DNA from: Datnioides undecimradiatus | Lineage: Eukaryota > Chordata > Actinopteri > Lobotiformes > Datnioididae | Assembly: GCA_008933995.1 (NCBI GenBank) | Contig: WARS01000033.1 | Span: forward strand, 3,035,813-3,099,812 | Length of the DNA stretch: 64,000 nt | Direction: 5' to 3' | Shown here: piece by piece, positions 36,528-42,135 of the stretch | Position numbering within the stretch: position 1 is the stretch's first letter | Layout: every line of letters begins with the position of its first letter | The notes under the pieces: generated by a model | Told to the model about the DNA's origin: nothing | The model's database searches: none | What the model saw: only the letters and a program-made list of their open reading frames with translations | Position numbers and translations under genes: made by a program

Positions 36528-36532
36528 ATGAC
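36528..36532 (+). repeat. Target-site duplication ATGAC, left copy
   Basis: ATGAC directly precedes the retrotransposon. The same five bases follow it at 42131-42135. Confidence 0.9.
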
Positions 36533-37126
36533 TGACAAGGTCGGTTCTTGAACCCAATAGCACAACTCGGACTCAGGGCCAAATTCAAAAGATATAATTT
36601 ATTAACAAAGTACAACCAAAAATCACTCGAAAACGAGGAATACAACAAAGTAACAAATTAACTGTTTCAGCAAAAACTGGCTATCAAAGCCGCTAAGAAA
36701 GAAAACAGAAAATCACTCTAAAAAGAGGCAAAAAACAAAATCACACGCCACATGGGCTAACAACAAAAAAATCACTCTTAAAGAAGAGGTTCGGCTTAAC
36801 ACAGCAAAGTAACAAATAAACTCACAGACTTCATTATCGATCAGGACAGGATAACTAGACAAGACAGGACGCTGGTTCTCGGTTCTCACAGACGCGACGA
36901 ACTGGCACGAGACAGGGGGAGACGCAGACTTATATACACAATAGGAAATGGGGAACAGGTGGAAACAATCAGGTCGGGGAAGACAATCAGACAGGCGGGA
37001 ACCACATGAGGAAGGGCAAGCCACCTGAAACGAGAGGGAAGTTAGATCCTTCAAAATAAAAGGGAAGTCACAAGACACGACAGAAACCAAAACAAACCAG
37101 CTTGACCATCTAGTTATACCATGACA
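36533..37126 (-). repeat. 3' LTR of the chromovirus
   Basis: The 594-bp left-hand copy. On the minus strand it starts TGTCATGG and ends CCTTGTCA. The TATATAAG box is at 36929-36936, the predicted RNA start is near 36906, and AATAAA is at 36598-36603. The last codons of pol extend 13 bases into it. Confidence 0.95.
36598..36603 (-). terminator. Polyadenylation signal in the 3' LTR
   Basis: AATAAA on the minus strand, at the same LTR position as in the 5' copy. It would end the element's RNA and define a very short U5 of about 50 bases. Confidence 0.6.
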
Positions 37127-40100
37127 TTACCCCCCGTCCTAGGGACGGCTCCCGACGGCCCAGGATTCTGTGGATGTGACTGGTAGAATTCCGTGATGAG
37201 GTCTGGATCCATAATAAAACTGTCCGGAACCCAAGATCGTTCCTCCGGCCCGTATCCCTCCCAGTCTACCAGAAACTGTCTGCCCCGGCCCCTGGAACGC
37301 ACCGCCAGTAATTTCTTTACCGAATATACCGGACCCCCGTCCACCATCCGGGGGGGTGGTGGAGGCTTGACCACTGGAACCATCCGACTTTCCTTAACAG
37401 GCTTAATGCGACTCATGTGAAACGTCGGATGCACCCTCAGGGACCGAGGCAGACGCAACCGAACAGCGGAGGGTCCGATGACCTTCGAAATCGGGAACGG
37501 GCCCACGAATCGAGGGGCCAGCTTCTTGGACTCAATGCGCAGAGGAAGATCCCGGGCTGACAGCCACACCTTCTGGTCCGGCTGGTAGGTCGGAGCCGGG
37601 CGCCGTCTGCGATCGGCCGCCCTTTTCATCCGAGCTGCACTGCGTAGCAGCATCCGACGCGCAGCTGCCCAGACGCGGCGACACCGCCGAACCATGGCGT
37701 GAGCCGACGGCACTGAGATCTCCCCCTCTAGGTCCGGGAACAGAGGGGGCTGGTATCCGAATACGCACTGGAACGGAGACATTCCCGTGGCGGAGGTAGG
37801 AAGCGAATTATGGGCGAATTCCACCCAGGCCATGTTTTTACTCCAGGAAGCCGGAGTCTGTGACACCAAGCACCGCAGGCATGTCTCCAATTCCTGGTTT
37901 AGCCGCTCAGCCTGGCCATTTGATTCGGGGTGGTATCCTGAAGACAGGCTCACTGTAGCGCCTATGAGCTTGCAGAACTCCTTCCAGAAGTGTGACACGA
38001 ATTGGGGCCCTCTGTCCGATACAATGTCCTTTGGAAAACCATGAATACGAAACACGTTAGTCATCATAATTTCAGCAGTTTCTTTGGCTGAGGGCAACTT
38101 TGGCAACGCAATGAAATGTGTCATTTTAGAAAACCTGTCCACCACTGTCAGAATGGTGGTGTGTCCGTCTGACACTGGGAGCCCCGTGACAAAGTCCATC
38201 GAAATTTCCGCCCACGGACGGGTTGGCACTGGAAGTGGCTGTAACAAACCCATCCGTGCCCCAGAAGCGGTCTTATTTCGGGCGCAGACCGTACATGCCT
38301 CCACATATTCCCGTACTTCGCGATCCATGGCCGGCCACCAGAACCGTTGGGAAATGACCCACACGGTTCGTTTGATTCCGGGATGGCAGGTAAGGAGCGA
38401 GGTATGAGCCCAGTGGATTACCTGAGGACGCAGAGCCGCCGGAACAAACAAGCGGTTCCTTGGGCATCCTCTAGGTGGTGGGCTCACTCCATTTGCTCGC
38501 TGTACCTCAGACTCTATCTGCCACGAGACAGCTCCTACCACACGGTCGGGTGGTAGGATAGATTCTGGCTCCTTGGCAGGTGGTTCAGGGTTGAACAGAC
38601 GGGACAAAGCATCCGGCTTCCCATTCTGCGACCCCGGTCTATATGACAGGACAAAGTTGAACCGATTAAAAAAAAGTGACCATCTAGCCTGGCGTGAATT
38701 AAGCCTTTTTGCCTTCCTAACATACTCTAGATTCTTGTGGTCCGTCCAAACTACAAAAGGATGCTGCGCCCCTTCTAGCCAATGACGCCACTCTTCTAAA
38801 GCCATCTTAACCGCCAGTAGCTCTCTGTCACCTATATCATAATTTCGCTCCGCTGCAGAAAGTTTGCGCGATAGAAATGCGCACGGGTGAAGTTTACTAT
38901 CTCCTTCTGCGCGTTGCGACAGGATCGCCCCCACCCCTTCGCTGGATGCATCAACCTCCACTACAAATTGCCGCGCGGGGTCCGGAACAATTAATATGGG
39001 GGCTGAGGTAAAAAGCTGTTTTAGTTTGGTAAAAGCCGCGGCGGCTTCAGGGGACCACCGGAACGGCGCTTTAGGGGAGGTTAAGGTGGTGAGAGGGGCG
39101 ACTGTAGCGCTGAAGTTCCGGATAAACCGTCTGTAGAAGTTAGCAAATCCTAGGAATTGCTGAACTTTCTTACGGCTATCCGGGACCGGCCACTGAGCCA
39201 CAGCGCTGACTTTTGCCGGGTCCATCTGAATCTTCCCGGGGGCTACGATGAAGCCCAGGAAAGATACAGAATCGGCGTGGAATTCACTCTTTTCCGCTTT
39301 GACATACAACTGATTTTCCAGCAATCGCTGAAGAACCATCCGTACGTGTTGTACGTGCGAGTCCAGGTCGGCGGAAAAGATCAGAATGTCGTCTAGATAA
39401 ACGTAAACAAACTGGTTTAGAAATTCCCGTAACACTTCATTAATCATGCCCTGGAACACAGCCGGGGCATTCGTGAGTCCAAACGGCATTACCAAATACT
39501 CATAATGTCCGCTAGGCGTATTAAAACCCGTCTTCCATTCGTCCCCCTCCCGAATCCGAACTAGATGATATGCGTTTCGAAGATCTAGTTTGGTAAAGAC
39601 TTTGGCTTGCTGCAGCTGATCAAAAGCCTCTGACATCAACGGGAGGGGGTACCGATTTTTAATGGTAATTTCGTTTAGCGGACTATAATCTATGCACGGG
39701 CGCAACGAACCATCTTTCTTAGCTACAAAGAAAAACCCCGCTCCTGCTGGTGAGGAAGACGGACGAATGAGCCCGGCTTTTAGCGATGAGTCGATGTATT
39801 CTTTCATGGCTTCTTTCTCGGGACCTGACAGAGAGTAAACCCTCCCTTTAGGGATGGGTGCGCCCGGGACCAAATCTATGGGGCAGTCATATGGTCTGTG
39901 AGGAGGGAGAGAAGTGGCTTTGGCTTTACTAAACACTTCTCCTAAGTCGTGATAACGTCTGGGCACCAAGGACAGGTCGGGTGGAGCAGAACCTGAAGCG
40001 AGAACAGTATCTGTGTTAATTTTCAGCGACACCTGTTGCTCTCTCAACTCACTCCTACACTCATGGGAGCAGGCTTCGGCCCACCCCCGTACCGCCCCGG

Positions 40101-40545
40101 TAACCCAGTCTATGGTTGGATTATGTCGCTGTAACCACGGAAGACCCAGAACCAGCGGATGGTTGGGGGAGTCATATAGGAAAAAATTCATTAATTCTTG
40201 ATGGGTGTCCACCCGTACTTCAATGGGACCCGCCTGATGCGTGATTTTAAAAATCTCGCTGCCGTTTAATGCCTTGACCACCAGCGGTCGCGGTAATAGT
40301 CTAGCGGGGACTCTCAATTGGCGGGCCACCTCCCAGTCCATCAGACTTTCGTCCGCCCCTGAATCTATCAACGCCGATACTGTGACTATCGCGTCTTGGA
40401 ATTTAATTTTCACTTGAGTTAAGGCTCGGGATAGAGGTGGAGAGGAGGCAAAGCGGCTCACCAGTAGTTCTCCGTCTACTGGCGAGCCTGGTCTTTTACT
40501 GGGCATTTCGACCTGAGATGTCCCAACTCTCCACAATAAAAACAC
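37114..40545 (-). CDS. pol: Pol polyprotein of sushi-like chromovirus
   Basis: An 1143-codon frame counted from GTG at 40545. The frame is open from 40587, and a first ATG is at codon 14. Order seen: aspartic protease with DSGA at 61-64; reverse transcriptase about 265-430 with YLDD at 383-386; RNase H about 525-650 with VDAS, DRELL and TDHKN; integrase with an HHCC finger (H714, H721, C751, C754) and catalytic D784, D844 and E880 (35 residues between the last two); and a C-terminal chromodomain about 1074-1125 with Y1074, W1095 and W1105. It lies in the -1 frame relative to gag with about 112 bases of overlap, so it is probably made by frameshifting. The last codons run through the polypurine tract into the 3' LTR. 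All catalytic residues I looked for are present. Confidence 0.96.
37127..37140 (-). other. Polypurine tract
   Basis: On the minus strand, AGGACGGGGGGTAA abuts the TG of the 3' LTR. This is the expected position and composition of the primer for plus-strand DNA synthesis. It also encodes the end of pol. Confidence 0.8.
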
Positions 40546-41522
40546 CGCCCCTCTTGTAGTCGACGTCGGCGTTCCTCCGGAGACAGCTTAGCACCACCCA
40601 GTTCCATGGGCTCTGCGGCTGGTGTGTCGGAACTGGTTCTCCGTGTGATTGGAGATCCGTGAACCCACCGCTCCTTCCCCGCCTCTCCTGTGCGGCTCCT
40701 GAACCACTCCCGGGGCGGCTTGCTCCGAGCTTTCTGGCGTGCCTGCAAGCGGTTGTCCGTTCTAATGGCTAGGGTCATTAACGCCTCGAGCCGTGGTGGT
40801 AGATCCAGAGGAACTAAAAGGTCCTGGATCTGATCTGAAAGACCTTTCAGAAAAACGTCATAAAGCGCTGCTTCGTTCCATCCACTGCCTGAAGCCAGCG
40901 TACGAAACCGAACTGCATAGTCACTTACTGGTTCCCTGCCCTGATGAATGGAACTTAGTTCCCTTGCCCGTTCTTTGTCCACCACGGTGGGGTCGAAAAC
41001 CTCCCTCAGAGCCGTGATGAATCCCTGGATAGACTCACAGACAGGCGATTCCCGAGCCCACTCCGTTGTGGCCCATTTTCTTGCTCTCCCAGTGAGATGA
41101 GAGACCATGAAGGCCACCTTCGCTCGGTCTGAGGGGAATGCAGCAGGCGAGAAATCAAAGTGCATTTGACAGTCTGTTATGAATGAGCCACAATCGTCAG
41201 ACTCACCGGAGTATTTTTCAGGTGGGGCTAGGCGTAGACATTCTCCAGACGAAGGAGGGGATGGAGCACTTTGGACGGTGGTCGGCGCAGCTGCAACTTC
41301 CGTTCCTGGAGCGGCTCCAGCCGTGAGGAGAGTCAGGATTTGCTGCACCTGGGTTGACAGGACCCCCACCTGGACTGACATGCCTGCTTTAAAGAGCTCT
41401 TGATTGCCGGCCAGCTCCTTGATTCCCTGATGAAGTGAGGAGAGCTGGTCTTCTTGACTGTTCAGCCTCACGCCTTGGGCGTGAACGGCCGCTTCCAGAG
41501 TTCCGGAGTCGGCTGGGTTCAT
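40476..41522 (-). CDS. gag: Gag protein of sushi-like chromovirus
   Basis: 348 residues from the ATG at 41522, reading [16 protein letters not shown]. The open frame extends upstream into the 5' LTR, but this ATG is the plausible start, 16 bases after the LTR. The order is: a helical, coiled-coil-like N-terminus (about 15-65), a Pro/Ala linker, the retrotransposon gag capsid region (about 105-265), the PMELGG motif near 305-310, and a zinc knuckle, [14 protein letters not shown], at 327-340 (CX2CX4HX4C). It binds and packages the element RNA into particles. The pol frame starts within its last 112 bases. No stop or frameshift is seen. Confidence 0.95.
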
Positions 41523-41526
41523 GCTG

Positions 41527-41536
41527 GCCAGTTCGT
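41527..41536 (-). other. Putative self-priming primer-binding site
   Basis: On the minus strand the sequence two bases after the 5' LTR is ACGAACTGGC. Its exact reverse complement, GCCAGTTCGT, begins at 41910, the predicted RNA 5' end. No convincing tRNA complement is seen here. The arrangement matches the self-priming described for Tf1/sushi elements. Confidence 0.7.
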
Positions 41537-41603
41537 ACTGACAAGGTCGGTTCTTGAACCCAATAGCACAACTCGGACTCAGGGCCAAAATTCAAAGATA
41601 CAA

Positions 41604-41609
41604 TTTATT
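41604..41609 (-). terminator. Polyadenylation signal in the 5' LTR
   Basis: AATAAA on the minus strand, about 300 bases downstream of the predicted RNA start. The R region is therefore long. Confidence 0.6.
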
Positions 41610-41932
41610 AGCAAAGTACAACAAAAAATCACTCGTAAGCGAGGAATACAACAAAGTAACAAATTAACTGCTTCAGCGAAACTGGCTATCAAGGCCGATA
41701 AAAAGGAAAACAGAAAATCACTCCAGAAAGAGGCAAAAAACAAAATCACACGCCACATGGGCTAACAAACAAAAAATCACTCTTAAAGAAGAGGTTCAGC
41801 TTAATACAGCAAAGTAACAAAATAACTCACAGACTAGATTTTGCTCAGGACAGGATAACTTGACAAGACAGGACGCTGGTTCTCGGTTCTTACAGACGCG
41901 ACGAACTGGCACAAGACAGGGGGAGACGCAGA

Positions 41933-41940
41933 CTTATATA
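41933..41940 (-). promoter_or_regulatory. TATA box of the chromovirus LTR
   Basis: TATATAAG on the minus strand. Thirty bases from its first T lies G at 41910, where GCCAGTTCGT begins. That is the expected TATA-to-start distance and independently supports 41910 as the RNA 5' end. Confidence 0.75.
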
Positions 41941-42130
41941 CACAATAGGAAATGGGGAACAGGTGGAAACAATCAGGTCGGGGAAGACAATCAGACAAGC
42001 GGGAACCACATGAGGAAGGGCAAGCCACCTGAAACGAGAGGGAAGTTAGTTCCTTCAAAATAAAAGGGAAGTCACAAGACACGACAGAAACCAAAACAAA
42101 CCAGCTTGACCATCTAGTTATACCATGACA

Positions 42131-42135
42131 ATGAC
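42131..42135 (+). repeat. Target-site duplication ATGAC, right copy
   Basis: ATGAC directly follows the retrotransposon and matches 36528-36532. Confidence 0.9.

What the first reader, a model, noticed from the sequence alone, without database searches (positions are those of the whole stretch)
41527..41940. Self-priming signature in the chromovirus, supported by TATA spacing
The 10 bases ACGAACTGGC, two bases downstream of the 5' LTR (41536 to 41527, minus), are exactly complementary to GCCAGTTCGT starting at 41910. That point is 30 bases from the start of a TATATAAG box, where the RNA should begin. The RNA's own 5' end could therefore fold back and prime reverse transcription, as established for Tf1 and proposed for sushi elements. 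Two independent signals agree on one base.
Basis: partly seen in the sequence, partly recalled or inferred. Interest (0 to 1): 0.7.

Follow-up and report, generated by a model that had tools for sequence, protein, structure and literature searches.

The report
Retrotransposon RNA that primes itself
The RNA of this jumping element very probably folds its own first ten letters onto a matching site downstream and uses them, instead of a borrowed tRNA, to start being copied into DNA; this is a known trick of its family, and here it is backed by six matched versions of the two sites that change together across sister families in the same genome.

Summary
ACGAACTGGC (41536-41527, minus strand) lies two bases after the 5' LTR and is the perfect complement of GCCAGTTCGT (41910-41901), which begins 30 bases from the TATATAAG box. 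In related chromoviruses of that genome I located both arms at 33 places: they pair 10 of 10 in 24, with G-U wobbles only in 3, with true mismatches in 6. The 24 exact pairs are of six sequences; four of the ten pairs change on both sides together, six never vary. The match is exactly ten bases in 24 of 24. A second helix, between U5 and the start of gag across the PBS, also covaries as a set, though not cleanly in every family; it resembles the U5-IR stem reported for Tf1. The third duplex of the Tf1 'pretzel' was not found. A tRNA primer is unlikely: tRNAs end in CCA, and the first TGG starts nine bases past the LTR. Self-priming is thus strongly supported by sequence; transcription start and RNase H cleavage were not measured. 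The mechanism is known for Tf1/sushi elements: a new member of a known kind.

The parts
41539..42130 (-). 5' LTR, 592 bp, TGTCAT...TTGTCA
36533..37126 (-). 3' LTR, 594 bp; 33 differences from the 5' LTR
42131..42135 (-). target-site duplication GTCAT, 5' side
36528..36532 (-). target-site duplication GTCAT, 3' side
41933..41940 (-). TATATAAG box, 30 bases before the presumed RNA start
41901..41910 (-). presumed self-primer GCCAGTTCGT, the presumed first ten bases of the RNA
41537..41538 (-). two-base spacer GT between the LTR and the PBS; it would be copied into the cDNA end and removed by integrase 3' processing (inference)
41527..41536 (-). primer-binding site ACGAACTGGC
36897..36906 (-). 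copy of the self-primer sequence in R of the 3' LTR, intact
41604..41609 (-). AATAAA, likely polyadenylation signal near the R/U5 border (motif recalled)
   Evidence: read
41555..41577 (-). U5 arm of the second helix (8 bp, 3-base bulge, then further pairs)
   Evidence: placed
41502..41521 (-). downstream arm of the second helix; overlaps the first gag codons
   Evidence: placed
40476..41522 (-). gag open frame from the ATG at 41522 (the listed frame opens at a TTG, 41588)
37114..40545 (-). pol open frame: protease, RT, RNase H, integrase, SH3_Tf2-1, chromodomain
37127..37139 (-). polypurine-tract region GGACGGGGGGTAA beside the 3' LTR

Best explanation
The element is a chromovirus (Ty3/gypsy with a chromodomain) that starts reverse transcription with its own RNA. 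RNA made from the TATA box begins at or near G41910 (inferred). Its first ten bases pair with the PBS two bases past the 5' LTR; that these two sites pair is shown by covariation. A second helix between U5 and the start of gag folds the RNA across the PBS (supported by covariation of the set). The element's RNase H then cuts after base 10, leaving a 3' U paired to A41536, and the RT extends from it through GT into U5 (inferred from Tf1). The copy of the ten bases in R of the 3' LTR restores the sequence after strand transfer (inferred). Plus-strand synthesis would copy the primer into the new PBS, so a change at the RNA 5' end can rewrite the PBS (inferred).
For: Exact arms and spacing. Both arms located at 33 places: 24 exact, 3 wobble, 6 mismatch; six exact pair types, four of the ten pairs changing on both sides. 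With eight representatives, own pairs give 80 of 80 Watson-Crick pairs; 4 of 40320 reassignments do as well, which is what two pairs of identical arms allow. Match length exactly ten in 24 of 24 exact cases; a TATA-like box 28-31 bases before the arm in 31 of 33 places. The arm is conserved in 12 LTRs at 77-80% identity while many blocks of the part downstream of it diverge. Second helix: 9 of 40320 reassignments fold as well as the own pairs. Chromodomain and SH3_Tf2-1. Literature passages.
Against: The RNA start and primer cleavage were not measured. Minimum-energy folding of the 474-base leader does not show the pairing, z = -0.54, 30 of 100 shuffles as good; with the second helix the fold is a pseudoknot, which that program does not model. 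The third Tf1 duplex is not seen: in 14 of 14 loci at least 53 of 300 shuffles were as good. For the second helix, 27 of 300 shuffles matched the window's own arms in the shorter stretch, and the own partner is the best partner in only 4 of 8 rows. Six of 33 places have mismatched arms. L032 has the arm in its 5' LTR but no recognisable PBS. Seven loci (six places if L087/L088 are one) with a PBS had no recognisable arm in the DNA held. Two of the six types rest on one place each.
Confidence: 0.92

Rival explanations
1. Ordinary tRNA priming: the conserved TGGYC inside the site binds a tRNA 3' end.
For: CTGG(C/T) is shared by the six exact PBS types.
Against: tRNAs end in CCA, so the PBS must begin TGG; here TGG begins at the ninth base past the LTR, which does not fit a two-base integrase trim. 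Best run from CCA among 20 tRNA genes is 4 bases (five amino acids only). It does not explain why bases outside that motif match the family's own LTR.
Confidence: 0.03
2. The pairing is real RNA structure but serves circularisation, dimerisation or packaging, not priming.
For: Covariation shows pairing, not its purpose.
Against: The arm sits where a PBS must be: two bases past the LTR in 9 of the 10 located places whose LTR end was set by an LTR pair or LTR alignment. No tRNA-type PBS stands at the LTR edge, and the related Tf1 uses the same pairing for priming.
Confidence: 0.04
3. Chance or shared descent without function.
For: Six of the ten pairs never vary among the exact types, so descent alone could explain that part of the match.
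Against: The other four pairs differ between the six types and each arm matches its own partner fully.
Confidence: 0.01

Closest known systems
Tf1 of Schizosaccharomyces pombe
   Same: RNA 5' end complementary to a PBS just past the 5' LTR; chromodomain integrase (recalled for Tf1); a flanking helix between an LTR sequence and a PBS-adjacent sequence
   Different: Ten paired bases here against eleven in Tf1 (recalled, not from a call); the third duplex was not found here; the host genome is another, unnamed one
sushi-ichi and other vertebrate Tf1/sushi elements (Butler et al. 2001, seen only as a citation; not held)
   Same: Chromovirus; self-priming and the pretzel fold are attributed to the group
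   Different: Sequences could not be compared here; the six co-resident arm types are the added evidence
Tj1 of S. japonicus
   Same: PBS complementary to its mRNA 5' end; 5-bp target duplication
   Different: Its transposition was tested in yeast; nothing of the kind here
Tcn1-clade chromoviruses of mosses and club-mosses
   Same: Self-priming predicted for the majority of elements of the clade
   Different: Different hosts; for SM-Tcn1 (a club-moss element, host recalled) an earlier paper found evidence for neither kind of priming

Membership tests
Tf1/sushi group of chromoviruses | Ty3-type pol with a chromodomain at the integrase C-terminus | tested here: met
   Pfam RVT_1, RNase H, H2C2, rve, SH3_Tf2-1 and Chromo in one open frame
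Tf1/sushi group of chromoviruses | PBS complementary to the RNA 5' end rather than to a tRNA | tested here: met
   the RNA 5' end itself is inferred from TATA spacing, and only 20 tRNA genes were compared
Tf1/sushi group of chromoviruses | flanking U5-IR-like duplex of the pretzel | tested here: met
   9 of 40320 reassignments as good; main helix, 3- or 4-base bulge and outer helix in 16 of 22 loci; own partner best in 4 of 8 rows
Tf1/sushi group of chromoviruses | third duplex of the pretzel | tested here: inconclusive
   in 14 of 14 loci at least 53 of 300 shuffles as good; the search was a simple duplex scan
Tf1/sushi group of chromoviruses | RNase H cleavage of the RNA to free the primer | not testable with these tools
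   needs biochemistry
Tf1/sushi group of chromoviruses | RT places in the group's clade in a tree | not tested
   no named reference RT set was fetched; among solved structures the best match is Ty3
tRNA-primed Ty3/gypsy elements | PBS starting TGG at the LTR edge and matching a tRNA 3' end | tested here: not met
   sequence; 20 tRNA genes of five amino acids

The most novel reading that the evidence does not exclude
One genome holds at least six self-primer 'codes'. Because plus-strand synthesis copies the primer back into the PBS, a single change at the RNA 5' end can rewrite both arms in one cycle, and the diverging codes may keep co-resident families from priming on each other's RNA.
Probability: 0.15. 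Interest if true: 0.55.

Novelty: new member of a known kind. Interest (0 to 1): 0.37.

Why it matters
Self-priming has been demonstrated for yeast Tf1 and attributed to vertebrate sushi elements. A set of co-resident families whose primer and PBS change together, with a second helix that covaries as a set, makes the claim testable in this genome with short RNAs and RNA-seq. It also warns that tools that look for tRNA-type PBS will miss such elements.

Tried and rejected
Whole-leader minimum-energy folding showed nothing special. A third pretzel duplex between the bases after the primer and those before the PBS was sought in 14 loci and not found. tRNA priming was tested against 20 tRNA genes, which are 20 of the 63 scored of 23,134 first-look candidates and cover Thr, Cys, Ala, Phe and Ser only. 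45 loci were fetched around 45 of the 99 SH3_Tf2-1 matches; 20 showed a recognisable PBS and 19 both arms; 25 gave no PBS in the piece held, among them L032 and L045, which do carry the arm in an LTR. In one search some matches to a loose PBS pattern were set aside by eye because they lay in unrelated context (in L045, L048, L049, L055, L057, L058, L059, L066, L074). Of 20 hits of the PBS pattern, 5 repeat earlier places; of the other 15, 9 had both arms and 6 none recognisable; in L087 and L088 a one-mismatch match in unrelated context was not counted. L086 was first a miss and proved exact at longer range. The wobble cases may partly be CpG decay (L036 could be), so I do not count them as extra proof of RNA pairing. 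That the PBS follows CAGT was a search condition for the SH3 pieces read with the loose pattern and for the pattern hits; it is independent only where an LTR pair or alignment set the LTR end. The list of TATA-like boxes was written after seeing the sequences.

Full report
WHAT IS THERE. The window holds a chromovirus insertion with both LTRs on the minus strand: 5' LTR 42130-41539, gag, pol, 3' LTR 37126-36533, flanked on both sides by the 5-bp duplication GTCAT. Pol carries RT, RNase H, integrase, the SH3_Tf2-1 domain and a chromodomain.

The window's genome (581 Mb, 497 contigs, unnamed) is held. A search with the 5' LTR and leader gave 40 scored matches of 808 candidates, 30 of them as loci; by eye 19 of the 30 read as solo LTRs with a short duplication on both sides. 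In 12 LTRs only 77-80% alike (L019-L030) the ten-base arm stays nearly unchanged, mean identity 0.98 against 0.76 for the LTR as a whole; but other blocks of U3 and the promoter are as conserved, and 32 of 583 ten-base blocks score higher. That shows conservation, not yet pairing.

COVARIATION. Loci around SH3_Tf2-1 matches and hits of a PBS pattern that leaves three bases of the PBS free (20 matches, none for the pattern read backwards) brought in sister families with other PBS sequences. Both arms were located at 33 places: 5 from the LTR search (window included), 19 from the SH3 set and 9 from the pattern set. In 24 of 33 they are exact complements, in 3 they differ by G-U pairs only (L036, L037, L082), in 6 there are true mismatches (L014, L018, L049, L060, L069, L076). 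The exact pairs are of six types, RNA 5' arm first: GCCAGTTCGT (11 places), GCCAGAGTGT (4), GCCAGATTGT (4), GCCAGATCGT (3), GCCAGTGTGT (1), ACCAGATTGT (1). Arm positions 1, 6, 7 and 8 differ between types and the PBS changes with them; the other six positions are constant. Neighbouring bases never extend the match in the 24 exact cases. With eight representatives, own partners give 80 of 80 Watson-Crick pairs, swapped ones 7-10 of 10; only 4 of 40320 reassignments equal the total, and these merely swap identical arms. Places were mostly found by allowing up to two mismatches to the PBS complement, so a place with worse arms would count as a miss. A blind scan of 45 loci for exact ten-base complements starting two bases behind any CA found 26, of which 13 are the PBS and promoter pairs; first-order random sequences gave 2-12 per set, mean 7.2 over 20 sets, without asking for a TATA box. 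Places with a PBS but no arm (L065, L084, L085, L087 and its likely duplicate L088, L089, L091) were checked, L088 excepted, with arm-masked flank queries: no flank was recognised upstream of the PBS, or, in L091, the flank match stops just before the arm, as after a deletion. A diverged LTR could also escape that check.

POSITION. The arm begins 30 bases from the first T of the TATA box in the window. A TATA-like box lies 28-31 bases before the arm in 31 of 33 places; L018 has 24-26 and L035 lacks the upstream sequence. The boxes range from TATATAAG to TTAAATAG and, in L049, L057, L063 and L092, weak TTATAC or TTATGC; the list of boxes was made after seeing the sequences. About 30 bases is where RNA polymerase II usually starts (established knowledge). 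It is a prediction, not a mapped start. PBS two bases past the LTR: the spacer is GT in 31 of 33 places, GA in L048, and L018 is decayed. For many of these CAGT was a search condition; among the 10 places whose LTR end was set by an LTR pair or LTR alignment (window, L014, L018, L023, L029, L031, L033-L036) it holds in 9.

SECOND HELIX. In the window, U5 bases 41577-41555 pair with 41521-41502 around the PBS: eight base pairs, a three-base bulge, then more pairs, running into the first gag codons. A main helix, a 3- or 4-base bulge and an outer helix occur in 16 of the 22 loci; L031, L033, L037, L052, L077 and L092 depart from it. The letters differ between families, for example TGGGTTCA with TGAACCCA, TGGGTCCA with TGGACCCA, and TGAGTCC with GGACTCA. 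As a set, own arms fold better than swapped arms: 9 of 40320 reassignments are as good, mean energy -23.1 own against -17.1 across types. Singly it is less clean: the own partner is the best one in 4 of 8 rows (not for L031, L048, L052, L077), and in the shorter stretch shuffles equalled the own arms in 0 to 36 of 300, 27 of 300 for the window. Part of the downstream arm is also coding. Passages of a paper on fission-yeast elements describe the Tf1 pretzel as a central primer-PBS duplex plus two duplexes between PBS-adjacent and LTR sequences; the name U5-IR is from the title of Lin and Levin 1998, seen in reference lists. One of these two duplexes has a counterpart here; the other does not show: in 14 of 14 loci at least 53 of 300 shuffles were as good.

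MECHANISM. Shown: the two arms change together, so they pair; the PBS lies two bases past the LTR in the window; a second helix can fold across it. Inferred from Tf1: the RNA's own first ten bases are cut free by RNase H and extended. The two-base gap fits removal of two bases from the cDNA end by integrase (inference). tRNA priming does not fit: the first TGG past the LTR starts at the ninth base, and 20 tRNA genes of this genome give at most four paired bases from their CCA end. In a self-primed cycle the PBS of the new copy can be copied from the primer itself, so matched changes need not be two independent mutations (inference); this would make the covariation evidence for priming in particular.

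KNOWN OR NEW. A survey of plant elements states that self-primers have been described in Tf1/sushi elements of yeast and vertebrates, citing Butler et al. 2001 and Lin and Levin 1997 (passages). The S. osmophilus genome paper calls self-priming a common feature of the group (passages). The Tj1 paper proposes it for that element and says it was first demonstrated for Tf1 (background section). [quoted passage not shown] So the mechanism is known. A search for 'self-primed reverse transcription' with 'covariation' found no paper, but Butler et al. is not held and may already show several such folds. I file this as a new member of a known kind.

Noticed in passing
42130-41539 and 37126-36533; L002-L006, L011-L013: The two LTRs of the window's element belong to different subfamilies: the 5' LTR is 99.7-99.8% identical to LTRs at other sites (L002-L006) but 94.4% to its own 3' LTR, which is nearer L012/L013 (98%). 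The target duplication is intact, so LTR conversion or intermolecular strand transfer is likely and LTR divergence cannot date it.
   Followed up: partly
40476-40545: Gag and pol open frames overlap in different frames in this copy, whereas some relatives show one open frame of about 1450 codons around the SH3 domain. Not pursued.
   Followed up: no
L005/L006, L087/L088: The same stretch appears on two contigs, which suggests haplotype duplicates in the assembly; copy counts may be inflated.
   Followed up: no
L086, L072: The distance from primer arm to PBS is 1282 and 1000 bases instead of 210-521 in the other 31 places, so something is probably inserted while both arms stay exact.
   Followed up: no
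G000, 71 places: A wider PBS-gag pattern matches 71 places in the genome and none when read backwards, so many leaders of this kind exist here; only part was read.
   Followed up: partly
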